43,687 bases of DNA. Source: an uncultured Gemmiger sp. (lineage in GTDB: Bacteria > Bacillota > Clostridia > Oscillospirales > Ruminococcaceae). Both the position numbers and the translations under genes were made by a program. The stretch's first letter is position 1; each line of letters begins with the position of its first letter. Under the pieces are notes generated by a model that saw only the letters and a list, made by a program, of their open reading frames with translations, made no database searches and was not told the origin of the DNA. Positions 1 to 43,561 of this stretch are shown one piece after another. The stretch lies in NCBI GenBank assembly GCA_944388135.1, contig CALXHP010000073.1, positions 1 to 43,687 of the forward strand. The letters are read 5' to 3'.

Positions 1-68
1 CCCCTTGAGGGGCGTTGTCCGTATTACGCCCTTCTAGGGCTTACACAAGCCCCCGGCTTAGCCGGGGG
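1..68. mobile_element. Possible IS200/IS605-type end with three consecutive hairpins
   Basis: Three short perfect hairpins follow one another: CCCC-TTGA-GGGG (1-12), GCCC-TTCTA-GGGC (28-40) and CCCCCGGC-TTA-GCCGGGGG (50-68). A reading frame entering from the left edge stops at 35-37. Subterminal GC-rich hairpins with a 3-nt loop are typical of IS200/IS605 ends, and a near-identical hairpin lies at the far right of the window (43636-43652). No transposase domain is visible here, so the assignment is an inference. The third hairpin could also act as a terminator for a gene outside the window, but no T-tract follows it on the plus strand. Confidence 0.35.
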
Positions 69-88
69 TCCTGACTTTGCTGTAGATA

Positions 89-1441
89 TTATGCCTGCAC
101 GGGTGTGCTGCTGAAACACCCCCGCCGTTTCAGATAAAGGAAGGCCGCCACGCAGATGATCACCGATACCAGTGACCCGCACACGGTGGCCAGTCCCATG
201 GGGAGAAGCGTATCGGGGAAGAGCACCGACATCAGGTGGACCCCGGGCACCCGCATCAGCAGGATGGCACAGATATTGTGCAGGAAAGAGATCTCCGACC
301 TGCCGTAGGCGCAGAAGTATCCGCTGAAACTGAAATGGATCCCCGCAAACAGGCAGTCCCAGATATAGCCGCGGATGTACTGCCCGCCTGCCAGAATGAC
401 CGCCGTGTCGGTGGTAAAAAGTCCTACCACCGGTTCGGCAATCCATTGCATCACGATGCTGACGCAGAACCCGAACCCTGCGGCGATCAGGATGGCATAG
501 CGCAAGGTAAGCGTTGCACGATCGTGTTTGTTGGCGCCGATGTTCTGGGCTCCCAGGGCCGATACGGTGGACAGCATGGAGGAGGGAACCAGGAACAGAA
601 AGCTGATGACCTTTTCCACGATTCCCACCGCGGCAGCGTCATTCAGCCCCCGGCGGTTGGCAATGATGGTGATGACGATAAAGGCAATCTGGATGAAACC
701 ATCCTGAAATGCTACGGGAAGGCCGATTTTCAGCACCTGACGCAGGACGGGACGGCGGGGCTTCAGGTCGGCGCGCCGCAGGCGGATGCCGGTCTGGCGG
801 GTCAGGATCACCCCCAGGGAAACCACTACGCTGATGGCCTGGGACAGGGTCGTTCCCAGGGCAGCGCCGGCGGGGCCCAGCCCCATGACCCCGATAAAGA
901 GGTAATCCAGGGCGATATTGGCCACACAGGCTACCGCAATAAAGTACATGGGACTTTTGGAATCCCCCAGCCCCCGGAAGATGGAACTGATGATGTTGTA
1001 AGCGGTGATACAGGGAATACCGATAAAACAGATGGTCAGGTAAGCTGCCGTCCCAGCAACGGCTTCCTCCGGGGTGGACATGATGGCCACAATAGGTTGT
1101 ACAAATATCACCAGAATGGCCATCAGGGCAACAGAAATTGCCATAAAAAGGGAAACGGTGTTGCCGATGACTGCCGTAACCTGTTTGCGGTCTCCGGCAC
1201 CAATGGCCCGTCCGATGCTGACGGTAGACCCCATAGCCAGCCCTACGATCATCACGGTGATCATGTGCATGACCTGGCTGCCCACCGAAACAGCGGTGGT
1301 ACTGGCGGCTCCCTCAAACTGCCCGATGATGAACAGATCCGCCATGCCGTACAGCGTTTGCAGAAAATAGGATAAAAGGTAGGGCAGCGAAAAGTACAGT
1401 ACATTGCGCAGAACGCTGCCGGTGGTCAGATTTTTTTCCAT
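89..1441 (-). CDS. MATE family efflux transporter
   Basis: This is a 450-residue multidrug/toxin extrusion protein of the inner membrane, exporting cationic compounds or drugs in exchange for Na+ or H+. The sequence shows about twelve hydrophobic segments in two similar halves; the N-terminal half has the family pattern of Gly-rich loops (YGMADLFIIGQ, then GSTVSIGRAIGAG). I chose the ATG at 1441 because a GAGG element sits about 9 nt upstream and MATE proteins usually begin shortly before the first helix; a GTG- or ATG-initiated extension to 1477 would run through a hairpin. The gene is transcribed alone, divergently from the peptidase at 1695. The substrate cannot be told from sequence. Confidence 0.9.
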   Translation of the reverse strand: MEKNLTTGSVLRNVLYFSLPYLLSYFLQTLYGMADLFIIGQFEGAASTTAVSVGSQVMHMITVMIVGLAMGSTVSIGRAIGAGDRKQVTAVIGNTVSLFMAISVALMAILVIFVQPIVAIMSTPEEAVAGTAAYLTICFIGIPCITAYNIISSIFRGLGDSKSPMYFIAVACVANIALDYLFIGVMGLGPAGAALGTTLSQAISVVVSLGVILTRQTGIRLRRADLKPRRPVLRQVLKIGLPVAFQDGFIQIAFIVITIIANRRGLNDAAAVGIVEKVISFLFLVPSSMLSTVSALGAQNIGANKHDRATLTLRYAILIAAGFGFCVSIVMQWIAEPVVGLFTTDTAVILAGGQYIRGYIWDCLFAGIHFSFSGYFCAYGRSEISFLHNICAILLMRVPGVHLMSVLFPDTLLPMGLATVCGSLVSVIICVAAFLYLKRRGCFSSTPVQA

Positions 1442-1455
1442 GTGTTGTGTCCTCG

Positions 1456-1501
1456 GCCCTGCCTGCATGGCGGACACAAACAGTTTGGTGTCCGGCAGGG
1501 C
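1456..1501 (-). promoter_or_regulatory. Strong leader hairpin just upstream of the MATE ribosome binding site
   Basis: The outer arms GCCCTGCC (1456-1463) and GGCAGGGC (1494-1501) are perfect complements. An inner stem GGACAC (1472-1477) pairs with GTGTCC (1488-1493). On the minus strand this structure lies in the MATE mRNA leader and ends a few bases before the GAGG ribosome binding site. It may tune initiation or respond to a ligand or translation; there is no T-run after it, so it is not a simple terminator. Confidence 0.55.
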
Positions 1502-1531
1502 CTGCGGTGATTTCTCCCCTCCACACCTTAT

Positions 1532-1562
1532 ATAATAACGCCGGAGCCCCTGTTATCGTCAA
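1532..1562 (-). promoter_or_regulatory. Candidate promoter of the MATE gene
   Basis: On the minus strand TTGACG (1557-1562) is followed after 19 nt by TATTAT (1532-1537). The spacing is a little long for a sigma-70/SigA promoter. It lies upstream of the leader hairpin, giving a leader of about 85 nt. Confidence 0.4.
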
Positions 1563-1633
1563 TGCTTTTTTACAAAAAAAGACATCTTTTCCCTTGCCCG
1601 GGGCTGGAAAAAGTAAGTTTTTTGCGGGGTTTG

Positions 1634-1662
1634 TTTACTTTTACTGGGACAAGCGGTATAAT
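1634..1662 (+). promoter_or_regulatory. Promoter of the yfmF-yfmH-lgt-folD run
   Basis: TTTACT (1634-1639), a 17-nt spacer and a perfect TATAAT (1657-1662) precede the TTG start at 1695. This is the only good SigA-type signal before the next four closely packed genes. Confidence 0.6.
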
Positions 1663-1694
1663 ACCGGTATCTATTTGTTGAAAGGAATAACGCT

Positions 1695-2993
1695 TTGGAA
1701 CGAAAACAACTCGCGCCCGGGGTGTATATCACCACACTGGACGCTGCAAAATTCAATCGCTGCCGTATCACCGTTCATCTGCGCTTTCCCGCCCGGCGGG
1801 AATCAGCCACCGATGCTGCGGTGCTGGCCCTGGTACTGGAGCGGGGCTATGCGGCTTGCCCGGATATGACGGCCCTTTCCCGCCGGCTGGCGGAACTGTA
1901 CGGCGCCGACCTGGGAGTGGACCTCTCCAATGCAGGTACCGACCGGATTCTCTCGGCGGATATCTGCGGGATTCAGGACCGTTACGCCCTGAACGGAGAG
2001 AATCTCACCGACGCCTATGCCGATATCGTCTTTGGCACCATCTTTGATCCCTACCTGGTGGAGGGCGTTTTTGATGCCGAGGCGGTCCGCATCGAGACGG
2101 AAACCCAGGCTCGCCGTCTGGAGGCAGAATTCAACTCCAAACGCCTTTACTGCGTGCGTCAGGCCCGCCGTAAGTTTTTCGGGGACTCTCCGGCGGGCAT
2201 CGAGCTGGGCGGATATCCCGGTGAGCTGATTCACGTCACACCCGCCAGTCTGAAAGCGGAATACGACCGCATCCTGGCCACTGCCACCATCGACGTTATG
2301 GTCCAAGGAGCCGATGAAGCCCGGGTCGCCGACCTGCTGCTGCAAAAATTGCAGAATCTTCCCCGTACCCCCCAACCCTTTGCGTCGCCTATGGGGATGC
2401 CTGCCGCCGAGGTACGCCATTTCCGGGAAGAAATTTCCGGCCTGACCCAGGCGAAACTTTGCATGCTGTTTACCGCGGGGGACAACCCCAATCCGCCCAG
2501 TGTGAGCATCCTGCGGGTGGCTATGAGCGTGCTGGGCGGTTCCGCCACCAGCCGTCTGTTCCGCAACGTGCGGGAAAAACAATCTCTTTGCTATTATTGC
2601 GGTTCGGCTGCCCAGCGGGCCACCGGTGTGATGATGATCGATTCCGGCGTGGAACCCGGCAAGGAGGAGCAGGCGGAAGCGGCCATTCTGGCAGAGTGGG
2701 AGAACCTCAAGAATGGCCCCATTACCCAGGAAGAGGTGGACGACTGCCGCCGTGGTCTGCTCTCCGGCATGGATGCCCTGGGGGACAGCCTGGCCGCCTT
2801 GGAAAACTGGTATTACGGTCAGATCACCCGGGGGGAACCCCTTTATCCGCCGGAATACGGCAAGGTGCTCACCAGTGCCGTGTCCCTGGATGAGGTGCGT
2901 CAGGCGTTGCAGAGCTACAGCTATTCCCTCTGTTATGCCGTTACGGCCAAACCCGGTACCCAGGGGAAAGGAGGGGCGGAAGATGTCCAGTAA
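1695..2993 (+). CDS. yfmF: M16-family peptidase-like protein without zinc motif (YfmF type)
   Basis: This 432-residue protein is the non-catalytic partner of a paired M16 (pitrilysin-like) system. Its fold features (N-terminal M16 beta-alpha pattern, then a second M16 domain with a GGSATSRLFRNVREK-like region) are clear. The region where the active subunit carries HXXEH (about residues 40-57) has no such motif. In Bacillus, YfmF and YfmH are annotated as needed for the 5-aminopentanol modification of elongation factor P; that role here is by homology only. The start is TTG at 1695 with AAAGGA about 8 nt upstream. The 3' end overlaps the next gene by 11 nt, indicating translational coupling and probably a heterodimer. 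Confidence 0.82.
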   Translation: MERKQLAPGVYITTLDAAKFNRCRITVHLRFPARRESATDAAVLALVLERGYAACPDMTALSRRLAELYGADLGVDLSNAGTDRILSADICGIQDRYALNGENLTDAYADIVFGTIFDPYLVEGVFDAEAVRIETETQARRLEAEFNSKRLYCVRQARRKFFGDSPAGIELGGYPGELIHVTPASLKAEYDRILATATIDVMVQGADEARVADLLLQKLQNLPRTPQPFASPMGMPAAEVRHFREEISGLTQAKLCMLFTAGDNPNPPSVSILRVAMSVLGGSATSRLFRNVREKQSLCYYCGSAAQRATGVMMIDSGVEPGKEEQAEAAILAEWENLKNGPITQEEVDDCRRGLLSGMDALGDSLAALENWYYGQITRGEPLYPPEYGKVLTSAVSLDEVRQALQSYSYSLCYAVTAKPGTQGKGGAEDVQ

Positions 2994-4269
2994 AGAACAA
3001 TTTGCCGCCGCCCAGGCCCGGGCCGCCGGAGCTGTCAGCTGCCAGAAGGCGGTCTTGCCCAGTGGCTTGACAGTCCTCTGCCGCACCATGCCGGGTTACA
3101 GCAGTGTCCACGCCATCTATGCCACTGCCTTCGGTTCCATCCACCGGCAGTTTCAACTGGACGGCAAGACGGTGACGCTGCCCGCCGGCACGGCCCATTT
3201 CCTGGAGCACAAGATGTGCGAAACCCCCAAGGGGGACTCTTTTAGCTTCTACGCCAAGACCGGTGCTTCGGCCAATGCCTTCACCAGCTATGACCGCACC
3301 TGCTATATCTTCTCGGCCACCCAGAAGATCGACGAAAACCTGGACATCCTGTTGGGGCTGGTGGGCAAGCCCTGGTTTACCAAGGCCACCATCGCCAAGG
3401 AACAGGGGATCATCGGCCAGGAGATCAAGATGTATGACGACAGCCCCGACTGGCGGCTGCTCAATGCGTTGTTCCGCTGCCTGTATGCCGACCATCCCCT
3501 GCGGGACGATATTGCCGGCACGGTGGACAGCATTGCCACCCTGACCCCGCAGCTGCTGTACAGTTGCACCAAGGCATTCTATGCGCCGTCCAATATGGTA
3601 TTGTCGGTGGCGGGAAAAATCACACTGGAACAGGCGGTGGAAGCCTGCAAACGAAACGGCCTGTACCGGGCCCGCGCCGCCCATGAGGTGGTCTGGGACA
3701 TTCCGGCGGAAGCAGGTCCCATCCCCCGGAAAGAGGCACGGTTCACCATGCCGGTGAACAAGCCCTGTTTCGGTGTGGCTTACCGGGAACCGCCGCTGGT
3801 CCCCGGCGACCTGAAGCGGGAACTGCTGCTGGATATGCTCAGCGATCTGGTGGTGGGCGGTCTGACCAAACTGTACCGCAAACTGTATGACGAAGCGCTG
3901 GTCAACCCGGAATTTTCCGGTGACTTCATTTCGGTGCGGGGTGCCTGTGCGGTGGCCTTCACCGGCGAGAGTGAGACGCCCCGCCAGGTGGCAGAGATGC
4001 TCCAGGCGGAGATCGAACGGCTTCGCACCGAAGGCGTTGACCCGGAGCTCTTCCTTCTGGTGAAAAACCAGATGTATGGAGAATTGCTGGGCGATGTGGA
4101 GACGGTGGATGACGCCGCCGAGGAGGCGGCCGCCGCCTGCCTGAAAGGCCGCACTTTGGCCGATGAGATCGCCGCGCTGGCGGAGCTTACGGTGGAGGAC
4201 GCCAACGCCCTGCTGAAAACGGCCCTGCGGGAAGAGAACCGGGCCTACGTGCAGATCGACCCGCAGTAA
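2983..4269 (+). CDS. yfmH: M16-family zinc peptidase (YfmH type)
   Basis: This 428-residue protein is the catalytic partner of the preceding gene. The inverted zinc motif H72-F-L-E75-H76 is intact, and Glu147 in the GQEIKMYDD stretch fits the third zinc ligand at the usual distance. A second, non-catalytic M16 domain fills the C-terminal half. The ATG at 2983 has an excellent AAAGGAGG 8 nt upstream and overlaps the end of yfmF. A longer reading frame opens upstream in the same frame but runs inside yfmF and has no such signal. Proposed role: cytoplasmic peptidase of the YfmF/YfmH pair; the substrate is unknown. Confidence 0.85.
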   Translation: MSSKEQFAAAQARAAGAVSCQKAVLPSGLTVLCRTMPGYSSVHAIYATAFGSIHRQFQLDGKTVTLPAGTAHFLEHKMCETPKGDSFSFYAKTGASANAFTSYDRTCYIFSATQKIDENLDILLGLVGKPWFTKATIAKEQGIIGQEIKMYDDSPDWRLLNALFRCLYADHPLRDDIAGTVDSIATLTPQLLYSCTKAFYAPSNMVLSVAGKITLEQAVEACKRNGLYRARAAHEVVWDIPAEAGPIPRKEARFTMPVNKPCFGVAYREPPLVPGDLKRELLLDMLSDLVVGGLTKLYRKLYDEALVNPEFSGDFISVRGACAVAFTGESETPRQVAEMLQAEIERLRTEGVDPELFLLVKNQMYGELLGDVETVDDAAEEAAAACLKGRTLADEIAALAELTVEDANALLKTALREENRAYVQIDPQ

Positions 4270-4317
4270 GTTTCCCCGCAAAAGGGGACAATACAAAAGA
4301 AATCGAGGAAGTATACT

Positions 4318-5466
4318 ATGGTCTACCATGTTCAATTTCCGGGGCTGGGGCTGGAGTTTACCATCAACCGGGTGGCCCTTTCCATCGGCGGGTTCAATAT
4401 TTACTGGTATGGTGTCATCATCGCAGTGGGCATGCTGCTGGCGCTGCTCTACGCTTTTCATTATGCGGCGGATTTCGGCATTGATTCCGATCGTCTGGTG
4501 GACGTTGTGGCCATCGGCACGGTAATGGCCATTGTCTGTGCCCGTATCTATTACGTGGCCATGGCGCCCTTCCAATACCAGAGCCTTTGGGAGATGGTGG
4601 ATATCCGCCTGGGCGGTATCGCCATCTATGGCGCGGTCATCGGCGCTTTTGTGTTTGGCGGCCTGGCCGCCAAATGGCGCAAGGTGCCGCTGCTGCCGCT
4701 CTTCGATCTGGTGGCCCTGGGCTTTCTCATCGGCCAGGGCATCGGCCGCTGGGGGAACTTTGTGAATCAGGAAGCTTTCGGCACCAACACCACGCTGCCC
4801 TGGGGCATGTACAGCGAAGGCACCAAAGCCTATCTGCAATCGGTGCAGGTCACGCTGCCCGCCGGCGTGACGGTGGACCCCAGCATGCCGGTACATCCCA
4901 CCTTCCTGTATGAGAGTATCTGGTGTCTGGTGGGCTTTGTAGCCCTGGCCCTGTATGTGAAGCATCGTAAATTCCACGGTCAGATTTTCCTGCTGTATGC
5001 CATCTGGTACGGCCTGGGCCGTGGTTGGATCGAGGGCCTGCGCACCGATTCGCTGCTCATCGGCAATACCGGTTTGCGGGCCAGCCAGCTGGTGGCGTAT
5101 GTTTCGGCACTGGTGGCCTTCTTCCTGCTGGTAGCCGGCCTGCGCCGGGTGGAGGGCAGGAAGCTGATGGTCACACTGCCTGTGAGGGATATCCAGAAAG
5201 AGGCCAAAGCGGGGGACCGCTTTGCACCGGATACCCTTCCGGCCAATGCCTCCCATGCTGAATTTGTAAAAGCTACCGATGCCATGAACGACCGGTTGGC
5301 AGCGCTGGACCTGGATGTACTGGATATTGAAGCGTTGGAAGATCCCGAACCGGAACCGGCAGAGGTCACACCCAAGCCGGTGCCGGACGAGATAGAGGAT
5401 TCTGCGGCCGAAAAGGAGGCTGCACAGCCTTCTGAGGAAGCCGCCACACAGCAGGAGGGAAAGTAA
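4318..5466 (+). CDS. lgt: Prolipoprotein diacylglyceryl transferase with acidic C-terminal tail
   Basis: Lgt moves diacylglycerol from phosphatidylglycerol to the lipobox cysteine of prolipoproteins in the membrane. The signature GRWGNFVNQEAFG, the GGIAIYGAVIGA loop and the late GLGRGWIEGLRTD motif are all present, together with about seven membrane segments. At 382 residues it is long for Lgt: after about residue 280 comes a hydrophilic tail rich in Glu, Pro and Ala (for example DPEPEPAEVTPKP) that is not part of the enzyme and should lie in the cytoplasm. The ATG at 4318 follows GAGGA by 8 nt. The stop codon abuts the folD ATG directly, so the two are co-translated. Lipoproteins that it could process include the one at 38705. 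Confidence 0.95.
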   Translation: MVYHVQFPGLGLEFTINRVALSIGGFNIYWYGVIIAVGMLLALLYAFHYAADFGIDSDRLVDVVAIGTVMAIVCARIYYVAMAPFQYQSLWEMVDIRLGGIAIYGAVIGAFVFGGLAAKWRKVPLLPLFDLVALGFLIGQGIGRWGNFVNQEAFGTNTTLPWGMYSEGTKAYLQSVQVTLPAGVTVDPSMPVHPTFLYESIWCLVGFVALALYVKHRKFHGQIFLLYAIWYGLGRGWIEGLRTDSLLIGNTGLRASQLVAYVSALVAFFLLVAGLRRVEGRKLMVTLPVRDIQKEAKAGDRFAPDTLPANASHAEFVKATDAMNDRLAALDLDVLDIEALEDPEPEPAEVTPKPVPDEIEDSAAEKEAAQPSEEAATQQEGK

Positions 5467-6321
5467 ATGAGTGCAAAGATCATCGACGGAAAAGCATTGG
5501 CCACGGCTGTCAAACAGGAGGCAGCTCAGCAGGTGGAGGCGCTCAAAGCAAAGGGGATTGCCCCTTGCCTGGCCGTGGTGCTGGTAGGGGAGGACCCTGC
5601 CAGCCAGGTCTACGTGCGGGGCAAGATCAACGATTGTGCCCAGTGCGGCATCGAAAGCCGGAATATCCGCTTGCCTGAGACCACTACCCAGGAAGAGCTG
5701 CTGGCTCAGGTCAAATCCTTGGCGGAGGACCCTGCCGTCCACGGTATTCTGGTACAGCTGCCGCTGCCTGCCCAGATTGACGAGAAAACCGTGATTGACG
5801 CCATCCCGCCGGAAAAGGACGTGGACGGGTTCTCCCCGGTGAATGTGGGCCGCATGCAGATCGGCGAACCCTGCTATCTGCCCTGTACGCCCGCCGGCTG
5901 CATCCGGATGATCGAATCCACCGGCACCGAGATCACCGGCAAACATGCGGTGGTGATCGGCCGTTCCAACATCGTGGGCAAACCGGCGGCCATGCTGCTG
6001 CTGGCCAAGAACGCCACGGTAACCATCTGCCATTCCAAAACGCAGAATCTCCAGGAAATCTGTGCTTCCGCGGACATTCTGGTGGCCGCGGTGGGCCGTG
6101 CGGGCTTTGTCACCGGGGATATGGTCAAACCGGGTGCGGTGGTCATCGATGTGGGCATCAACCGCGGCGCCGACGGCAAGCTCCACGGCGATGTGGACTT
6201 TGAGGCGGCCGCCGAAAAGGCATCCTGGATCACCCCGGTGCCGGGCGGTGTCGGTCCCATGACCCGTGCCATGCTCATGCTCAACACAGTGGAAGCGGCA
6301 CGCCGGGCAGGCAAGGCGTAA
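5467..6321 (+). CDS. folD: Bifunctional methylenetetrahydrofolate dehydrogenase/cyclohydrolase
   Basis: FolD interconverts 5,10-methylene-THF, methenyl-THF and 10-formyl-THF in the cytoplasm, supplying one-carbon units for purines and formyl-Met-tRNA. The 284-residue length is standard. Seen motifs: the catalytic Lys53 region (YVRGKINDCAQCGIE), VQLPLP, PCTPAGCIRM, the NADP-binding GRSNIVGKPAAMLL, and PVPGGVGPMTRAML near the end. The start ATG touches the lgt stop and the GGAGGGAAAG ribosome binding site lies inside the lgt 3' end, so it is the last gene of the operon from 1634. Confidence 0.96.
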   Translation: MSAKIIDGKALATAVKQEAAQQVEALKAKGIAPCLAVVLVGEDPASQVYVRGKINDCAQCGIESRNIRLPETTTQEELLAQVKSLAEDPAVHGILVQLPLPAQIDEKTVIDAIPPEKDVDGFSPVNVGRMQIGEPCYLPCTPAGCIRMIESTGTEITGKHAVVIGRSNIVGKPAAMLLLAKNATVTICHSKTQNLQEICASADILVAAVGRAGFVTGDMVKPGAVVIDVGINRGADGKLHGDVDFEAAAEKASWITPVPGGVGPMTRAMLMLNTVEAARRAGKA

Positions 6322-6358
6322 AAATACGCTGCAGCGGCCATGTTTTGACAAAAATTCC

Positions 6359-6387
6359 TTGACAAGCCGTACAATGTATGGTATAGT
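6359..6387 (+). promoter_or_regulatory. Strong promoter of rplU-rpmA
   Basis: A perfect TTGACA (6359-6364), a 17-nt spacer and TATAGT (6382-6387). A second TTGACA at 6345-6350 lies 14 nt upstream and could give an overlapping promoter with TACAAT at 6370-6375 (19-nt spacer). Near-consensus signals fit the high demand for ribosomal proteins. Confidence 0.75.
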
Positions 6388-6393
6388 TTTAGA

Positions 6394-6477
6394 GCCGCTT
6401 GGTATGGGCCCGAAAAGTGTGCGGTTTTGCCGCAACGCCCTACTGTCCAGCGAGACTTATTGAAAGAGGTTATCCGA
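6394..6477 (+). promoter_or_regulatory. rplU mRNA leader with small hairpin
   Basis: About 84 nt separate the predicted transcription start from the rplU ATG. A compact hairpin GCGG-TTTTG-CCGC lies at 6420-6432. Firmicutes rplU genes often carry an L21 leader RNA used for feedback control; I cannot confirm that this one matches that family's consensus. Confidence 0.35.
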
Positions 6478-6789
6478 ATGTACGCAGTTATCAAGACCGG
6501 TGGCAAGCAGTACAGCGTCAAGGTTGGCGACGTGGTTTACGTCGAGAAGCTCAACGCTGAGGCTGACAGCGAAGTCACCTTCGATCAGGTCCTGGCCGTT
6601 GGCGAGGAGGGCGCTGTCAAGGTTGGCGCTCCCGTTGTTGAGGGCGCTTCCGTCACCGCCAAGGTCGTCAAGAACGGCAAGGGCAAGAAGCTCAACATTC
6701 TCACCTATCGTCCCAAGAAGGGCAGCATGGTCCGCAAGGGTCATCGTCAGCCCTACACCAAGGTGGAAATCACCGCGATTAACGGCTAA
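6478..6789 (+). CDS. rplU: 50S ribosomal protein L21
   Basis: This 103-residue large-subunit protein binds 23S rRNA near L20. It starts with the family N-terminus [12 protein letters not shown] and ends with the conserved [23 protein letters not shown] block. The ATG at 6478 is preceded by AGAGG at good spacing. It is followed after only 14 nt by rpmA. In Bacillus-type genomes a small protease gene (prp/ysxB) sits between rplU and rpmA; it is missing here. Confidence 0.97.
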
Positions 6790-6803
6790 GGAGGTACAGC
6801 ACA

Positions 6804-7055
6804 ATGGCACATAAAAAAGGCGTAGGTTCTACCAAGAACGGCCGTGATTCCGAGTCCAAGCGCCTCGGCGTCAAGCGCGGCGACGGTCAGTACGTTCTGG
6901 CCGGCAACATTCTGGTCCGCCAGCGCGGCACCCACATCCATCCGGGTGAGGGCGTCGGCATCGGCAGCGATGACACCCTGTTTGCGCTGATCGATGGCCG
7001 CGTTCACTTCGAGCGCATGGGCCGCGACCGCAAGCGCTGCACGGTCAAGCAGTAA
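6804..7055 (+). CDS. rpmA: 50S ribosomal protein L27 without the cleavable N-terminal extension
   Basis: The 83-residue L27 reaches into the peptidyl transferase centre with its N-terminus. The protein begins directly with [20 protein letters not shown], the mature-type N-terminus. Many Firmicutes L27 proteins carry an extra segment of roughly nine residues removed by the Prp protease. Both the extension and the prp gene are absent from this locus, a consistent pair of losses. A GGAGG lies 9 nt before the ATG. A strong terminator follows. Confidence 0.97.
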
Positions 7056-7065
7056 AAAAACCAGA

Positions 7066-7096
7066 CGGGCGGGCCGGCATGGCCTGCCCGATTTTT
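7066..7096 (+). terminator. Intrinsic terminator after rpmA
   Basis: A 10-bp stem with one G-T pair (7066-7075 with 7081-7090), loop GGCAT, followed by ATTTTTATT. Confidence 0.85.
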
Positions 7097-7132
7097 ATTA
7101 CAAACGGTGCCCGGCACCGCACGAGGTAAACT

Positions 7133-8416
7133 ATGGCAACCAGTAATTTTATTGATACCGCGACCATCTGGCTGCACGCCGGCAAAGGCGGCGACGGCGC
7201 CGTGACCTTCCACCGCGAAAAGTTCGTGGCGGCGGGCGGTCCCGACGGCGGTGACGGTGGCCGCGGCGGCGACATTATCTTTGTGGCCGATGACAACCTT
7301 TCCACCCTGATGGACTTCCGCTACAAGCGCAAGTACACCGCCCAGGACGGCGAAAACGGCCGCGCCAAACGGCAGAGCGGCGCCGATGCCGAGGATCTGG
7401 TCATCCGGGTTCCCCGGGGCACGGTTTTGAAAGAAGCCGAGACCGGTCTGGTCATTGCCGACCTGTCCGGTTCCGAGCCGGTGGTGGTGGCCCGGGGCGG
7501 ACGCGGTGGATGGGGCAACTCTCATTTTGCCACGCCCACCCGGCAGATTCCCAAATTTGCCAAACCCGGTCTGCCCGGTGAGGACCTGCATGTCCAGCTG
7601 GAACTGAAGGTCATTGCCGATGTGGGATTGATCGGCTTCCCCAATGTAGGCAAATCCACCCTCATCAGCATCATCTCGGCGGCCAAGCCCAAGATCGCCA
7701 ACTATCACTTCACCACCCTGACCCCGGTTCTGGGCGTGGTGCGGGTCGGCCCGGAGCAGAGCTTTGTCTGTGCCGACATCCCGGGCCTGATCGAAGGCGC
7801 CGCAGAAGGTGTCGGCCTGGGTCATGACTTCCTGCGCCATGTGGAACGCTGCCGTCTGCTGCTCCATGTGGTGGATGTTTCCGGCTGTGAGGGCCGGGAC
7901 CCCAAGGCGGATTTTGAACAGATCAATCATGAGCTGGCGGGATTCAGCGCCGAACTGGCCCAGCGTCCCCAGATCGTGCTGGGCAATAAGTGCGACATCG
8001 CCACGCCGGAACAGATCGAAGAGTTCAAGAACTTTGTAGAGGCCCAGGGACTGACCTTCCTGCCCATCTCGGCGGCGACCCGGCAGGGGGTGGACAACCT
8101 GCCCGCTCTGGTCTACAACCGCCTGAAAGACCTGCCGCCCATCAAGGTGTACGAGCCGGAGTACAAGCGTCCCGACAAGAGTCTGGAACCCACCCGGCCC
8201 TTTACGGTCACCCGTACCGGCGAGCATGAATTTACCATTGACGCCCCCTGGCTGGAGCGCATTCTGGCCGGCACCAACGTGGAAGACTATGAAAGCCTGC
8301 AGTATTTCCAGACCCAGCTGGGCGATTCCGGTATTCTGGACAAACTGGTGACGGAAGGTGTCGAGGAAGACGACACCATTAAAATCGGTGAATACGAGTT
8401 TGATTATCTGTATTGA
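7133..8416 (+). CDS. obgE: Obg family GTPase
   Basis: This 427-residue GTPase acts in late 50S subunit assembly and stress signalling. Domains in order: the glycine-rich Obg fold (about 1-160, with repeated GG motifs such as GGDGGRGGD), the G domain (Walker A GFPNVGKST at 168-176, DIPGLIEGA switch, NKCD, SAA) and a C-terminal OCT domain with an acidic end. The ATG at 7133 has GAGG 7 nt upstream. It is placed right behind the rplU-rpmA terminator, a common gene order, and its stop overlaps or nearly touches mrnC. Confidence 0.97.
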   Translation: MATSNFIDTATIWLHAGKGGDGAVTFHREKFVAAGGPDGGDGGRGGDIIFVADDNLSTLMDFRYKRKYTAQDGENGRAKRQSGADAEDLVIRVPRGTVLKEAETGLVIADLSGSEPVVVARGGRGGWGNSHFATPTRQIPKFAKPGLPGEDLHVQLELKVIADVGLIGFPNVGKSTLISIISAAKPKIANYHFTTLTPVLGVVRVGPEQSFVCADIPGLIEGAAEGVGLGHDFLRHVERCRLLLHVVDVSGCEGRDPKADFEQINHELAGFSAELAQRPQIVLGNKCDIATPEQIEEFKNFVEAQGLTFLPISAATRQGVDNLPALVYNRLKDLPPIKVYEPEYKRPDKSLEPTRPFTVTRTGEHEFTIDAPWLERILAGTNVEDYESLQYFQTQLGDSGILDKLVTEGVEEDDTIKIGEYEFDYLY

Positions 8417-38704: not shown

Positions 38705-39292
38705 ATGAAAAAGCAAAACTGGTTTTTACTGCTGGCGGCGATGTTCACGGTACTTTTGCTGTGCGGCTGCAGCCAGTATGATGACAAGTACGAGGACGGG
38801 GCGTTCCTGGCCGACCGGGCAAACCACTATGTGGCGATAATATGGACAAGCAATCCGGAATTGGACGGGACTTACTCTCTGCATGCAGGCAGTTTTTCCG
38901 GCGTACGGACGCTGCGCTCTTTCACGGTGGAAGAGGAAGGGACCCTGTGCGAAGTGATCCCGGACCTCATCTGTACCAAGGGAGAAGCAAAACTGTTGCT
39001 GGTGGATGCCCAAGAAAGTACTCTGCTTTCACAGTGGCCGCTGGATAGCCAGGACCCTCTGTCGATCACTTTACCGGCTGGCCGGTATGAATTGCGCCTT
39101 GCCGGCAAGAGCGCCGGTTTTGACGGAACGATCAGCCTTGCTCTGAATGGGCAGATTTCGCCGTGGGATGACGTACTGGGGGAAATACAGGCGTCGGCGG
39201 AACAAGCACTGAGGGGAGGATGGAAAGAAGTCTTTCGCGAGGCAGCCGACTCGCTGCGGCAAGTCCTGGGAAACAAACAAAATGCTGCATAA
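38705..39292 (+). CDS. Putative lipoprotein, unknown function
   Basis: A 195-residue protein with a lipoprotein signal peptide: MKKQNWFLLLAAMF and hydrophobic core, then LLLCGC with Cys22 as lipidation site (Cys at -2 is unusual, Gly at -1 normal). The mature part has beta-rich segments (LDGTYSLHAGSFSGVRTLRSF, LPAGRYELRLAGKSA) and a helical end. I recognise no domain. GGAGGAG precedes the ATG and it follows the zinc ribbon by 19 nt. The previous stretch in the same frame, read from 38435, lies over the zinc-ribbon gene and is not coding. It could be an extracellular sensor of this wall-stress operon. Confidence 0.75.
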   Translation: MKKQNWFLLLAAMFTVLLLCGCSQYDDKYEDGAFLADRANHYVAIIWTSNPELDGTYSLHAGSFSGVRTLRSFTVEEEGTLCEVIPDLICTKGEAKLLLVDAQESTLLSQWPLDSQDPLSITLPAGRYELRLAGKSAGFDGTISLALNGQISPWDDVLGEIQASAEQALRGGWKEVFREAADSLRQVLGNKQNAA

Positions 39293-39347
39293 TGTATGGC
39301 TTTACCGAAATATGAAAGATTCTTTACCGCAATGTAAAATATGGATG

Positions 39348-39375
39348 TTGACAAACCCTGCACGTGCCGTATAAT
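39348..39375 (+). promoter_or_regulatory. Strong promoter of the potABCD operon
   Basis: Perfect TTGACA (39348-39353), 16-nt spacer, perfect TATAAT (39370-39375). Transcription would start near 39382, 208 nt before potA. Confidence 0.85.
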
Positions 39376-39381
39376 GTATTC

Positions 39382-39589
39382 TGTGTGCATCTGGGGGTAA
39401 ATCTGATCATGCCCTGCCACATTGGCGTTGTACGTGCTGCTTGCAGCGGCTTTCCAGGGTAGGAAAGACCGTGTAACAAACCTTTGCGGGGCGGCATAAA
39501 GCGCGCTGACCCGCAGGGGAGTGTAGGCGGCCAAAGCCGGATAACTGCATACCCGCTGCGGGAAATTCCGCAAAGGGGGATGCAGTAAT
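39382..39589 (+). ncRNA. Structured potABCD leader, possible riboswitch of unrecognised class
   Basis: The leader folds into a series of stems: CCCTG/CAGGG (39412-39416 with 39455-39459) enclosing GCTGC-TT-GCAGC (39436-39447); TGCGGG/CCCGCA (39485-39490 with 39510-39515); CGGC-CAAA-GCCG (39528-39539). A last hairpin, CTGCAT/ATGCAG (39545-39550 with 39580-39585) with inner TGCGG/CCGCA, contains the AAAGGGGG ribosome binding site of potA. That arrangement would let an upstream aptamer control translation. I compared it from memory with the common classes (TPP, cobalamin, lysine, ykkC, c-di-AMP, glycine) and saw no match. A polyamine ligand is the natural guess from the genes. Confidence 0.5.
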
Positions 39590-40636
39590 ATGGACGAAAA
39601 CATCATCGTATCACTGAAAGACATTGTTGTCGATTTTGACGGGCAGAAGGTTCTGGACGGACTTTCCCTCGACATTCACGACAAGGAGTTTGTGACTTTT
39701 CTGGGCCCTTCGGGCTGCGGCAAAACCACAACGCTGCGCGTGATTGCCGGGTTTATTACCCCAAAATCGGGCAATGTCTTTTTTGATGGCAAGGATATCG
39801 CGGACCTGCCGCCCTACAAGCGCCCGGTCAACACGGTGTTCCAGAAGTATGCGCTCTTTCCGCATCTGAACGTGTTTGAAAATGTGGCTTTCGGTCTGCG
39901 TCTGAAAAAGATGCCGGAGGAAGAGATTCGCCCCAAAGTGCTGGAAATGCTGGAGATCGTTGGCCTGAAGGGTTTTGAACGGCGCAGCATTCATCAGCTG
40001 TCCGGCGGCCAGCAGCAGCGTGTGGCCATCGCCCGCAGCCTGGTCAATCAGCCGCGGGTGCTTCTGCTGGACGAGCCCCTGGGTGCCCTTGACCTGAAGC
40101 TTCGCAAGGAAATGCAGCTGGAGCTGAAACGCCTCCAGCGGGAGATGAACATCACCTTCGTCTACGTCACCCACGACCAGGAGGAAGCCCTGACCATGTC
40201 GGACACCGTGGTGGTCATGTCGGGGGGCAACATCCAGCAGATCGGTTCCCCCCAGGATATCTACAACGAACCCCGCAATGCCTTTGTAGCCCGTTTCATC
40301 GGTGACTCCAACATTGTGGACGGCGTCATGATCAAGGACTTCCTGGTCAACTTCGGCGGCCACGACTTTACCTGCGTGGACCGCGGCTTCAAATCCAATG
40401 AGCCGGTACAGGTGGTCATCCGCCCCGAGGACGTGCAGATCGTGCCGCCCTCCATCGGTATGCTCACCGGCCTTGTGCGGGAAGTGATCTTCAAGGGCGT
40501 GCACTTTGAAATGCATGTGGATGTGGAAGGCTACGAATGGCTCATTCACTCCACCCAGGCCAGCCAGCCCGGTGAACTCATCGGCATGAACATCGGCCCC
40601 GACGAGATCCATATCATGGCCCGTACGGAGGTGTAA
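39590..40636 (+). CDS. potA: Spermidine/putrescine ABC transporter ATPase
   Basis: A 348-residue ATPase driving polyamine import. Walker [10 protein letters not shown] (39-47), signature LSGGQQQR, Walker [13 protein letters not shown]-loop [12 protein letters not shown]. The C-terminal part (about 240-345) is the regulatory TOBE-like domain ([14 protein letters not shown] and [12 protein letters not shown]). The start follows an A/G-rich site placed inside a leader hairpin. It begins the potABCD operon, with potB 3 nt later. Confidence 0.95.
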
Positions 40637-40639
40637 GCG

Positions 40640-41461
40640 ATGCTGAAATCCAAAACCTCCCGCTGGCTGGCAGGCCCCTACCTGGTGTGGATGGCGGCTT
40701 TTATTGTGGTGCCGCTCTTTATCGTCATCTGGTACGCCATGACCAATTCCGACGGTCAGTTTACCCTGGATAACCTGACCCAGATCGGCCGGTATTCCAG
40801 CGTCTTTGCCCGCAGCCTGATCCTGGCAGCGGTATCCACCGTGATCTGCCTGGTACTGGCTTTTCCCGTGGGATATTTTCTTTCCCGGCTGCGGGCCAAC
40901 AAACAGCACATTATGCTGATGCTGGTCATGCTGCCCATGTGGATGAACTTTTTGCTGCGCACCTACGCCTGGATGACCCTGCTGGAGAAAAACGGCCTCA
41001 TCAATAAGTTCTTCGGCTTGTTCGGCATCGGTCCCTTCAATATGATCAACACCTCCGGGGCTGTGGTGCTGGGTATGGTGTACAACTATCTGCCCTTCAT
41101 GATTCTGCCCATCTATACGGCCATGACCAAAATCGATGACTCCATCATCGAGGCGGCCCAGGACCTGGGCTGCAATGTCTGGCAGATTCTCTGGCGGGTG
41201 CTGGTACCGCTGACCGGCCCCGGCATTGCCACCGGCATCACCCAGGTGTTTGTGCCCTCGGTCTCCACTTTCATCATCAGCCGGATGCTGGGCGGCGGTT
41301 CCAATCTGCTCATTGGTGACCTGATCGAGCTGCAGTTCCTGGGCAACTCCTATAACCTGAACCTGGGCTCTGCCATGAGCCTGGTGCTGATGGTCATTGT
41401 CCTGCTCTGCATGAGCTTCACCTCCAGCTTCGATGAGTCGGAAATGGAAGGGGTGATGTAA
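40640..41461 (+). CDS. potB: Spermidine/putrescine ABC transporter permease PotB
   Basis: A 273-residue permease with six membrane helices and the EAA loop (EAAQDLGCNVWQILWRVLVPLTGPG) that docks on PotA. The start ATG has GGAGG just upstream, inside the end of potA. The next gene begins 1 nt after its stop. Confidence 0.94.
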   Translation: MLKSKTSRWLAGPYLVWMAAFIVVPLFIVIWYAMTNSDGQFTLDNLTQIGRYSSVFARSLILAAVSTVICLVLAFPVGYFLSRLRANKQHIMLMLVMLPMWMNFLLRTYAWMTLLEKNGLINKFFGLFGIGPFNMINTSGAVVLGMVYNYLPFMILPIYTAMTKIDDSIIEAAQDLGCNVWQILWRVLVPLTGPGIATGITQVFVPSVSTFIISRMLGGGSNLLIGDLIELQFLGNSYNLNLGSAMSLVLMVIVLLCMSFTSSFDESEMEGVM

Positions 41462-41462
41462 A

Positions 41463-42314
41463 ATGAATAAGAAACAATCCGTCATTTTACAGCGCACCTA
41501 TATCATCCTGATTTTCTGCTTCATGTACCTGCCCATCGCGGTCATGATCGCCTTCAGCTTCAACGAGAGCAAATCCCGCTCCAACTTCACCGGCTTCACC
41601 CTGGACTGGTACAAGAGCCTTTTCCACAACGAGATGATCCTCTCGGCTCTGGGGCTCAGCCTGGTGCTGGCGCTGGTTTCCAGCGTGCTGGCCACGGTGC
41701 TGGGTACCCTGGCCACCATCGGCATCAACTCCATGAGCCGCCGCACCCAGCTGATCGTCAACAACATCAGCTATGTGCCGGTGGTCAACCCCGAGATCAT
41801 CACCGGCGTTTCCCTGATGCTTCTCTTCGTCATGGCACAGAATTTCGGCCTTGGGGGAGACGGCGGCCTTTTCGGCTGGCCCACCCTGATCATTGCCCAC
41901 ATTACCTTCAATGTGCCCTATGTGATTTTTAATGTTGGCCCCAAACTGCGCCAACTGGACCCAAGCCTCTATAATGCGGCGCTGGACCTGGGCTGTACCC
42001 CCCGGCAGGCTTTCTTCAAAGTCATTTTGCCGCAGCTCTCCCCGGCGATTCTTTCGGCGTTCCTCATCTGCCTGACCTACTCCATCGACGATTTCATGAT
42101 CTCCTATTTCAACTCCGGCACCATGCAGACGCTGCCCATCGCCATCTATTCCATGACCCGCAAAAAGGTCAGCCCGGAGATCAACGCCCTGTCGGCGGTG
42201 ATGTTCTGTGTGATCCTGGCCATCATCCTGATCTCCAATGCGGCGGATTCCCGTGCCTACCGGAAAAACCAGACGGCTATCCGCAAGGCCATGCAGGAAG
42301 AAGGGGAGCGCTGA
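41463..42314 (+). CDS. potC: Spermidine/putrescine ABC transporter permease PotC
   Basis: A 283-residue permease, second membrane half. Six helices, EAA-like loop (AALDLGCTPRQAFFKVILPQLSPAI), and the PotC-typical LTYSIDDFMISYFNSG. Its ribosome binding site (GGGGTGA) lies in the potB end. potD begins 2 nt after its stop. Confidence 0.94.
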   Translation: MNKKQSVILQRTYIILIFCFMYLPIAVMIAFSFNESKSRSNFTGFTLDWYKSLFHNEMILSALGLSLVLALVSSVLATVLGTLATIGINSMSRRTQLIVNNISYVPVVNPEIITGVSLMLLFVMAQNFGLGGDGGLFGWPTLIIAHITFNVPYVIFNVGPKLRQLDPSLYNAALDLGCTPRQAFFKVILPQLSPAILSAFLICLTYSIDDFMISYFNSGTMQTLPIAIYSMTRKKVSPEINALSAVMFCVILAIILISNAADSRAYRKNQTAIRKAMQEEGER

Positions 42315-42316
42315 TC

Positions 42317-43561
42317 ATGAAAATACAGAAATTGTTTGCCGCGGTTCTTTCTGCGGCGGTCCTGGCGATGGTCTATGCGCCGGCTTCTCTGGCGGAAGGG
42401 GAGACCATTCCCGTTAATGACGATATCTCGGTTTCCGCTGATTACGATTGGACCCGCTTTGCCGATGACAACATCACCCTCAATGTCTACAACTGGGGCC
42501 TGTATATATCCGATGGCTCCGACGACAGCGTGGATGTCCTTTCCGCCTTTGAAGAACTCACCGGCATCAAGGTCAACTACACCACGTTTGATTCCAACGA
42601 AAGCCTGTATGCCAAGATGAAATCCGGCGGTGCCACCTATGATGTGATTTTTCCTTCGGATTATATGGTGGGCAAGATGGCTGCCGAGGGAATGCTGGCC
42701 CCTCTGGATTTTGATAAGATCCCCAACTTTGCCGGCATCGGTAAGGAATATTTAGGCTGGGACTTCGACCCGGACAACACCTACAGCGTGCCCTATATGT
42801 GGGGCACTACCGGCCTGATTTACAATACCACCCTGGTGGATGAAGCCCCTACCAACTGGTCGGCTTTGTGGGACGTACAGTATGCCAACAATGTTCTGAT
42901 GTTCAACAACTCCCGGGATGCCTACGCCATCGCCGCCAAGAAACTGGGGTATTCCCTGAATCCCCAATCGGTGGAAGAAGTGGACACCGTGATGCAGGAG
43001 CTGAAAAATCAGAAGAGTGTGGTCCAGGCCTATGTCATGGACGAGATCTTCGATAAGATGGAAGGCGGCGAAGCCGCCATGGCGCCCTACTATGCGGGCG
43101 ATGCCTTGACGATGATTGACGATAATCCGGATCTGGCCTTTGTGCATCCCAGTGAGGGCGTCAACTTCTTTGTGGACAGCATGTGTATCCCGGCCAATTC
43201 CAACAACAAGGAAGTCGCCGAACTGTTCATCAATTATATGTGTGAGCCTTCGGTAGGTCTGGCCAACTGCGATTATATCGGGTATTCCACCCCCATCACG
43301 GCGGTGTGGGAACAGCTGGACGACGATCTCAAATACAACGAGATTGCCTATCCCGGCGAAGATGTGATGAGCAAGGCGGAAGTCTTTACCACGCTGCCCG
43401 ACGAGATCAACGCGGAGCTGGACTCCCAGTGGAGCGAGATGAAGAGCTACGAGGAAGGCGGCAGCGGTTGGATGGTCGTGGTGCTGCTGGCGTTGGCGCT
43501 GGTGATTTCCTTCTTCAATATCTGGCGCAAATTGCGCAAAAAAGTCCGGGACGACTATTAA
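42317..43561 (+). CDS. potD: Polyamine-binding protein PotD with C-terminal membrane anchor
   Basis: This 414-residue solute-binding protein captures spermidine/putrescine. Residues 1-26 form a signal peptide cut after SLA (no lipobox Cys). The binding domain follows (NITLNVYNWGLYISDG, FDSNESLYAKMKSGGATYDVIFPSDYM, WGTTGLIYN). The end is unusual: a membrane helix at about 385-403 (VVVLLALALVISFF) followed by a basic tail RKLRKKVRDDY. Gram-positive PotD proteins are usually tethered by an N-terminal lipid; here a C-terminal helix seems to do so. GGAG lies in the potC end. Confidence 0.93.
   Translation: MKIQKLFAAVLSAAVLAMVYAPASLAEGETIPVNDDISVSADYDWTRFADDNITLNVYNWGLYISDGSDDSVDVLSAFEELTGIKVNYTTFDSNESLYAKMKSGGATYDVIFPSDYMVGKMAAEGMLAPLDFDKIPNFAGIGKEYLGWDFDPDNTYSVPYMWGTTGLIYNTTLVDEAPTNWSALWDVQYANNVLMFNNSRDAYAIAAKKLGYSLNPQSVEEVDTVMQELKNQKSVVQAYVMDEIFDKMEGGEAAMAPYYAGDALTMIDDNPDLAFVHPSEGVNFFVDSMCIPANSNNKEVAELFINYMCEPSVGLANCDYIGYSTPITAVWEQLDDDLKYNEIAYPGEDVMSKAEVFTTLPDEINAELDSQWSEMKSYEEGGSGWMVVVLLALALVISFFNIWRKLRKKVRDDY

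What the first reader, a model, noticed from the sequence alone, without database searches (positions are those of the whole stretch)
39382..39589. Folded leader of potABCD hides the ribosome binding site: candidate new riboswitch
A near-consensus promoter gives a 208-nt leader with at least four stems, and the last hairpin buries AAAGGGGG. The layout of aptamer plus translational switch fits a polyamine-sensing RNA. It does not look like the well-known classes.
Basis: partly seen in the sequence, partly recalled or inferred. Interest (0 to 1): 0.75.

Follow-up and report, generated by a model that had tools for sequence, protein, structure and literature searches.

The report
Conserved RNA switch before polyamine importer
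The start of the messenger RNA for a bacterial polyamine importer folds into a conserved knotted shape, in no RNA catalogue searched here, that hides the ribosome landing site, and it is probably a sensor that turns polyamine uptake up or down in gut Clostridia.

Summary
The leader (39382-39589) is real and conserved, although its conserved fold differs from the one given. A covariance model from 24 leaders, run over 297 genomes of the family, gave 90 places at E<=1e-3; 89 lie directly upstream of potA. Broader searches found it, again at potA, in eight other families. A pattern scan of 84,980 species gave 39 stretches, 37 of them 2-13 nt before potA. Base pairs changed on both sides number 879 cells against 295 in shuffles. 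No Rfam match in the window or 32 loci scanned. The ribosome binding site is not buried by a conserved local hairpin but by a near-invariant 9-bp pseudoknot, CCUUUGCGG/CCGCAAAGG, and often also by GGAUGCA pairing with the 5' end UGCAUCU. Best reading: a new candidate riboswitch class controlling potABCD translation, with a polyamine as likeliest ligand. Structure, location and occlusion geometry rest on comparison; ligand, ON/OFF direction and regulation are inferred. It does not match the SAM-I model to which the known spermidine riboswitch belongs. Ligand-binding tests are decisive.

The parts
39348..39375 (+). Promoter TTGACA - 16 nt - TATAAT; start of transcription expected near 39382
   Evidence: 12 of 12 matches; -35 is 6 of 6 in 24 of 25 aligned leaders; transcription start inferred
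39382..39589 (+). Whole leader of potABCD
39386..39392 (+). P0 5' strand UGCAUCU, pairs with 39578-39584 at the end of the ribosome binding site
   Evidence: exact TGCATC upstream in 38 of 65 leaders that end in GGATGCA (1.55 expected); 5 of 5 leaders with GGATACA carry TGTGTCT; not universal. Letters checked
39422..39428 (+). P1 5' strand, pairs with 39503-39509
39434..39440 (+). P2 5' strand, pairs with 39491-39497
39446..39472 (+). P3 hairpin (39446-39455 with 39462-39472), apical part variable
   Evidence: (lower part and two apical pairs)
39481..39489 (+). Anti-Shine-Dalgarno strand CCUUUGCGG of the pseudoknot
   Evidence: 9 bp with 39568-39576; 99.8% of cells paired over 96 distinct sequences
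39491..39497 (+). P2 3' strand
39503..39509 (+). P1 3' strand
39510..39562 (+). P4 hairpin (39510-39516 with 39556-39562), loop very variable in length
   Evidence: not found by RNAalifold
39568..39576 (+). Pseudoknot 3' strand CCGCAAAGG, contains the first part of the ribosome binding site
39572..39579 (+). Ribosome binding site AAAGGGGG, 10 nt before the ATG
   Evidence: assignment by position and purine content
39578..39584 (+). P0 3' strand GGAUGCA
39590..40636 (+). potA, ATP-binding protein of the spermidine/putrescine importer
   Evidence: NF043075 558 bits, cut-off 550; TIGR01187 372.2, cut-off 355.6
40640..41461 (+). potB-like permease
   Evidence: best NF007044 PotB, 195.6 bits, below cut-off 348
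41463..42314 (+). potC-like permease
   Evidence: best NF043073, 255.5 bits; NF007047 PotC 217.3; both below cut-off
42317..43561 (+). potD-like substrate-binding protein
   Evidence: best NF007048 PotD, 207 bits, below cut-off 582

Best explanation
A structured RNA class, not found in Rfam, in the 5' leader of potABCD, most likely a riboswitch that represses translation of the polyamine importer when a polyamine (or close relative) is plentiful. P1 and P2 are taken to stack as one long helix with an internal loop and to present the strand CCUUU(U)GCGG, which lies between P3 and the 3' side of P2. That strand pairs with CCGCAAAGG of the ribosome binding site (pseudoknot), and in many members the 5' end UGCAUCU pairs with the adjacent GGAUGCA, so the site is clamped from both sides. 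Ligand would bind P1-P2-P3, stabilise the clamp and switch translation off; when the clamp opens the ribosome can enter. Shown here by comparison: helices, pseudoknot complementarity, near-exclusive location before potA, no Rfam match. Inferred: that the clamp forms in the cell and blocks the ribosome, that a small molecule controls it, that the molecule is a polyamine, and that binding means OFF.
For: Position: 89 of 90 model matches at E<=1e-3 in 297 genomes are directly before potA, RNA end -3 to 13 nt from the start; 7 of the 90 come from genomes that gave model sequences, so 82 of 83 outside them. At order level 11 of 11 non-own matches at E<=6.4e-4 are at potA, 8 of them in five other families; at class level 3 of 3 non-own at E<=1.9e-4, three more families. 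Pattern scan of 84,980 species: 37 of 39 at potA (partly the same genomes). Covariation on A4, 96 distinct rows: 879 cells changed on both sides against 295 in shuffles, 89.7% of cells paired against 65.9%, score 0.569 against 0.176, slid registers 0.079-0.110; on A1, not fitted to the structure, 79 cells against 38.1, score 0.249 against 0.145. RNAalifold finds P1, P2 and P3 unprompted on A1. Pseudoknot: 9 bp, 99.8% of cells paired; in 94 of 96 leaders measured it is stronger than any alternative partner between it and the ribosome binding site. No terminator-like site. Rfam: nothing at the RNA.
Against: No ligand, expression or probing data. The pseudoknot is almost invariant, so it rests on complementarity and not covariation. 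A4 was fitted to the structure; the bare number of pairs with double changes does not separate it from shuffles (31 of 40 pairs against 30.0, 120 of 500 shuffles reach it; on A1 14 against 13.4, and further pair types 55 against 50.9). P4 is less well paired (77.2% of cells) and RNAalifold did not find it. P0 is not universal: of 32 leaders with a variant 3' segment 9 fit their own 5' region better than the common segment would, 7 tie and 16 fit worse. In the window and L033 the anti-SD strand has a stronger alternative partner in P4 (-18.5 and -18.7 against -16.9 kcal/mol). The own genome has one match only, at potA, none at its spermidine synthase cluster. Of 18 other-genus family members with a close potA (E<1e-140) only 8 have a match at E<=1e-3; in two of the other ten (G043, G060) the contig starts too near potA to tell. 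In the same 26 genomes none of the 8 without a close potA has such a match. Four readable leaders of 29 lack the motif.
Confidence: 0.6

Rival explanations
1. A riboswitch of this architecture that senses something other than a polyamine, for example an ion, arginine, agmatine, a methionine-cycle product or a global signal.
For: Only the gene association points to polyamines; the Pot proteins also match models of other ABC importers, and the substrate was not tested.
Against: Nearly one gene context only. A general signal would be expected before other operons too; in 1,282 genome searches with the two models (297+295+391+299, some genomes more than once) the only match at E<=1e-3 seen away from potA is L120, second weakest of the 90. 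Weaker matches were inspected only in part.
Confidence: 0.18
2. A leader bound by a protein, for example autoregulation by a Pot component or a dedicated RNA-binding repressor.
For: A leader that is nearly always beside the same operon fits autogenous control; conservation of both loops and helices fits either reader.
Against: The multi-helix pseudoknotted fold exceeds what most protein-bound leaders need, and Pot proteins have no known RNA-binding role (both recalled, not from a call).
Confidence: 0.15
3. A fixed translational brake or thermometer: the clamp limits translation without sensing a metabolite, or responds only to bulk polyamine or Mg2+ acting on RNA structure.
For: The pairings are strong in isolation (pseudoknot duplex -16.9, P0 -8.1 kcal/mol).
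Against: A brake would not need P1-P3 with covariation and conserved joining strands kept across families.
Confidence: 0.06
4. A chance fold of GC-rich DNA with no function.
For: None beyond the general weakness of single-sequence MFE.
Against: z -3.46, covariation and 89 of 90 matches at potA.
Confidence: 0.01

Closest known systems
Spermidine riboswitch (variant SAM-I aptamer; PMC10853860: abstract and one results section read)
   Same: RNA control of polyamine genes; a polyamine as (here presumed) ligand.
   Different: That class is a SAM-I four-stem junction, sits before polyamine biosynthesis genes and terminates transcription. This RNA has no SAM-I match in Rfam, sits before potABCD and has a ribosome-binding-site clamp and no terminator-like site.
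potE motif (PMC8632094, passages read)
   Same: Candidate riboswitch before a polyamine transporter gene in Firmicutes.
   Different: Veillonella and environmental samples, potE antiporter, some 200 nt from the gene, no obvious expression platform, structure not well supported by covariation by its authors' account. Not aligned to this RNA here.
potABCD ABC-leader of Haemophilus somnus and Pasteurella multocida (PMC2965389, one passage read)
   Same: Structured leader before potABCD.
   Different: Gammaproteobacteria; a candidate from a survey of premature terminators. Not aligned to this RNA here.
NAD+ riboswitch of the pnuC motif (PMC8632094, passage read)
   Same: Works alike in outline: compact aptamer, one gene family (a transporter), possible pseudoknot with the ribosome binding site.
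   Different: Different ligand and gene; whether that family is in the Rfam copy was not checked, and it was not aligned to this RNA.
potB 5' RNAs of Borrelia burgdorferi (PMC10319736, passages read)
   Same: RNA-level lowering of a pot importer by spermidine.
   Different: ORF-internal premature 3' ends in a spirochaete; no leader of this kind in the passages seen.

Membership tests
SAM-I / spermidine riboswitch | Match to the SAM-I covariance model | tested here: not met
   No Rfam match at the RNA in the window, in 20 loci (one of them the window's own) or 12 more loci; that the SAM-I model is in the Rfam copy is recalled, and rare variants could score below threshold
SAM-I / spermidine riboswitch | Transcription terminator as expression platform | tested here: not met
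   0 terminator-like sites in 39100-39800 (window only)
SAM-I / spermidine riboswitch | Selective spermidine binding | not testable with these tools
   Needs in-line probing
Any of 4227 Rfam families | Score at gathering threshold over the RNA | tested here: not met
   Window and 32 loci, one of them the window's own
Riboswitch (general kind) | Conserved structure with covariation | tested here: met
   the pseudoknot and P0 are supported otherwise
Riboswitch (general kind) | Consistent position upstream of, and on the strand of, functionally related genes | tested here: met
Riboswitch (general kind) | Expression platform coupling fold to translation | tested here: inconclusive
   Complementarity covering the ribosome binding site is there; coupling itself not shown
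Riboswitch (general kind) | Direct selective binding of a small molecule | not testable with these tools
   none
potE motif | Sequence and structure of the Veillonella motif before potE | not tested
   Its alignment was not available; the gene context differs (potABCD here)

The most novel reading that the evidence does not exclude
An independently evolved polyamine riboswitch class, unrelated to the SAM-I-derived one, that controls uptake and not synthesis, acts on translation, and traps the ribosome binding site between a pseudoknot and a 5'-end clamp. It would be shared by Clostridia of at least nine families.
Probability: 0.5. Interest if true: 0.85.

Novelty: new variant of a known kind. 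Interest (0 to 1): 0.75.

Why it matters
Polyamine riboswitches were long expected; the abstract of PMC10853860 (2023) calls earlier claims unconvincing and reports one class. A second RNA, without a SAM-I match and tied almost exclusively to the polyamine importer, would be a ready test of how RNA tells small polycations from the bulk polyamine and Mg2+ that all RNA attracts. It would also give a handle on polyamine exchange by Gemmiger and related gut commensals. Even if the ligand is something else, it is an RNA class with covariation that the Rfam 15 searches here did not match.

Tried and rejected
Local hairpin as the occluder: rejected as the general mechanism, because hairpins like that appear in 8 of 25 leaders, all near relatives (by eye, last 61 nt only).

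Competing helix between the anti-SD strand and the 5' side of P4 as a conserved switch: strong in the window and L033 (-18.5 and -18.7 kcal/mol) but stronger than the pseudoknot in only these 2 of 96 leaders (two of 98, L059 and L104, were not parsed), so rejected as general; it may matter in that clade. RNAalifold also pairs UGCA (columns 26-29) with UGCG inside the anti-SD strand in the first subtype; by eye it has no counterpart in the second subtype, so it stays a lead.

Matches at other genes: four order-level matches at E 0.0054-0.0094 and five class-level ones at E 0.0021-0.0095 had no potA match in their loci and are treated as chance. The one phylum-level match (L185, 0.006) was not inspected. 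In one search the places at E>1e-3 were not inspected at that point; one of them (G255) came back with the second model at 7e-8 and is at potA.

Known-family explanation: no Rfam match. Literature (open PMC library only): searches, of which I saw the listings (20 of 333, 5 of 5, 20 of 22, 11 of 11, 20 of 69, 20 of 47, 20 of 24), showed no paper evidently describing this RNA; papers not listed, subscription papers and preprints are not covered. PMC7266159, PMC11109978 and PMC6429828 were searched by term only; supplements were not searched.

Rows dropped: 4 of 29 readable leaders (L018, L019, L026, L030) were left out because no motif was seen by eye, and L022 because its contig starts inside potA. 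In one search, L008 was dropped as identical to L005 over the core. In one search, 8 of 105 entries were left out: L120 and L133-L136 as not the RNA, L122 and L123 as repeats, L033 without good reason. In one search, 48 of the 89 family members were used, leaving out long-insert members, near-duplicates and weaker matches. A4 holds 98 rows, 96 distinct; the class-level members L137-L139 are not in it.

Full report
What was checked. The window holds, at 39590-43561, a four-gene operon whose first protein exceeds NCBIfam cut-offs for the polyamine importer ATPase and whose other three have spermidine/putrescine transporter models as best match, below cut-off. A 12-of-12 promoter ends at 39375 and the 208-nt stretch to the potA ATG folds more stably than shuffles (z -3.46). 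In the window Rfam gives one tRNA elsewhere at gathering threshold; in 39100-39800 at E<=10 there are four matches, to two microRNA families, a thermometer and RAGATH-25, all far below their gathering scores.

Relatives. potA orthologues were sought in 100 relatives. Of 29 loci with a readable leader, 25 carry an alignable leader; four do not (L018, L019, L026, L030). Very conserved blocks appear: UGCAUCU near the 5' end, GCGUUGUAUGUGCYRC, GUGUAACAAACCUUUUGCGGGG, GGCAUAAUUGGCGCUGACC and UCCGCAAAGGGGGAUGCA.

Structure. The alignment of 24 cores made without any structure (A1) supports four helices and a pseudoknot (85.4% of cells paired against 78.3% in shuffles, 79 cells with both sides changed against 38.1, score 0.249 against 0.145; but pairs with a double change 14 against 13.4 and further pair types 55 against 50.9, which do not separate). 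RNAalifold found P1, P2 and part of P3 on that alignment unprompted; it did not find P4 and cannot find pseudoknots. On 96 distinct sequences aligned with the second model (A4), 879 cells have double changes against 295, 89.7% of cells pair against 65.9%, and sliding the partner by one to three columns drops the score from 0.569 to 0.079-0.110. The number of pairs with a double change (31 of 40, every pair outside the pseudoknot) is not informative, since shuffles give 30.0. A4 was fitted to the structure, so these figures lean towards it, and relatedness of the sequences is not modelled. P1, P2 and the two parts of P3 have 82-94% of cells paired, P4 77.2%. The pseudoknot, 39481-39489 with 39568-39576 in the window, is paired in 99.8% of cells but nearly invariant, so it rests on complementarity kept in all families.

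The second clamp. Of 65 leaders whose 3' segment reads GGATGCA, 38 have an exact TGCATC in the stretch of up to 148 nt that ends 8 nt inside the core, where shuffles give 1.55. All five leaders with GGATACA have TGTGTCT, which restores a Watson-Crick pair; three of the 65 have TGTGTCT as best partner, using G-U. Of the 32 leaders with variant segments nine fit their own 5' region better than GGATGCA would, seven tie and sixteen fit worse. So P0 is well supported in many members, and not universal.

Distribution and context. Seven of the 90 come from genomes that gave model sequences. Among 26 family members of other genera examined, 18 have a close potA (E<1e-140) and 8 of these have the RNA at E<=1e-3; none of the 8 without a close potA has it. 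Two genomes of the own genus without a close potA (G008, G012) gave no match. The second model over 295 genomes of the order matched 16 at E<=0.01: the own genome, 11 others at E<=6.4e-4, all at potA and 8 of them outside the family, and four weak ones not at potA. Over 391 genomes of the class it matched nine: own, three at E<=1.9e-4 all at potA, five weak ones not. Over 299 genomes of the phylum: own and one weak, not inspected. A pattern scan of the pseudoknot, without the models, in 84,980 species gave 39 stretches, 37 of them 2-13 nt before potA; the other two are the same stretch in two Aliiroseovarius genomes without potA beside it. Many of these genomes overlap with those of the model searches.

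How it most likely works. The ribosome binding site AAAGGGGG lies across the join of the pseudoknot 3' strand and the P0 3' strand, so both pairings would remove it from the ribosome. No terminator-like site is present, so the control point is most likely translation. The P1-P2 helix with its internal loop, P3, and the A-rich joining strand (columns 138-139, 92-93% A) make a plausible aptamer. For an importer, OFF at high ligand is the expected sense. The own genome also has a cluster of an Orn/Lys/Arg decarboxylase, spermidine synthase and an arginase-family enzyme, while no S-adenosylmethionine decarboxylase of PF02675 was found in this 83% complete assembly. The own genome's single match is at potA, so the RNA would govern uptake only.

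Against known systems. The spermidine riboswitch is a SAM-I variant before biosynthesis genes that works by termination (PMC10853860, abstract and section 8). The RNA here fails both tested features. The potE motif and the Pasteurellaceae pot leader differ in taxon and context; their alignments were not compared. In outline it works like translational riboswitches with a ribosome-binding-site pseudoknot such as the pnuC motif, without evidence of membership.

Verdict.

Noticed in passing
L184 (MT837720.1) 1-7756: A record labelled Bacteriophage sp. carries the whole potABCD operon with this leader; it looks like mislabelled bacterial DNA. Its potA matches in two pieces.
   Followed up: partly
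L018 upstream of potA: A same-genus leader with a 90% identical potA seems, by eye, to have lost the P1-P3 part but to keep a P4-like hairpin and a GGGGGA ribosome binding site: a possible natural deletion of the sensor.
   Followed up: no
window 39481-39489 with 39510-39519: In the window and one near relative (L033) the anti-SD strand can pair with the 5' side of P4 more strongly than with the ribosome binding site, possibly a clade-specific competing state.
   Followed up: partly
L126-L128, L131, L138, L139; L130: A third subtype in other families has ACUCUUUGCGG as anti-SD strand (ACCCUUUGCGG in L130) and, in L126-L128, L130, L131 and L138, a GCAGUU...GAACCG-like stretch before the core.
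   Followed up: no
window 42317-43561: The PotD-like protein ends in a hydrophobic stretch followed by basic residues, which looks like a C-terminal membrane anchor.
   Followed up: no
L186 (own genome, contig C4): Orn/Lys/Arg decarboxylase, spermidine synthase and arginase-family genes lie together, with no PF02675 S-adenosylmethionine decarboxylase found in the assembly.
   Followed up: partly
L124 881-964, minus strand: A ribosomal protein L21 leader match just below its gathering score (35.2 against 36).
   Followed up: no
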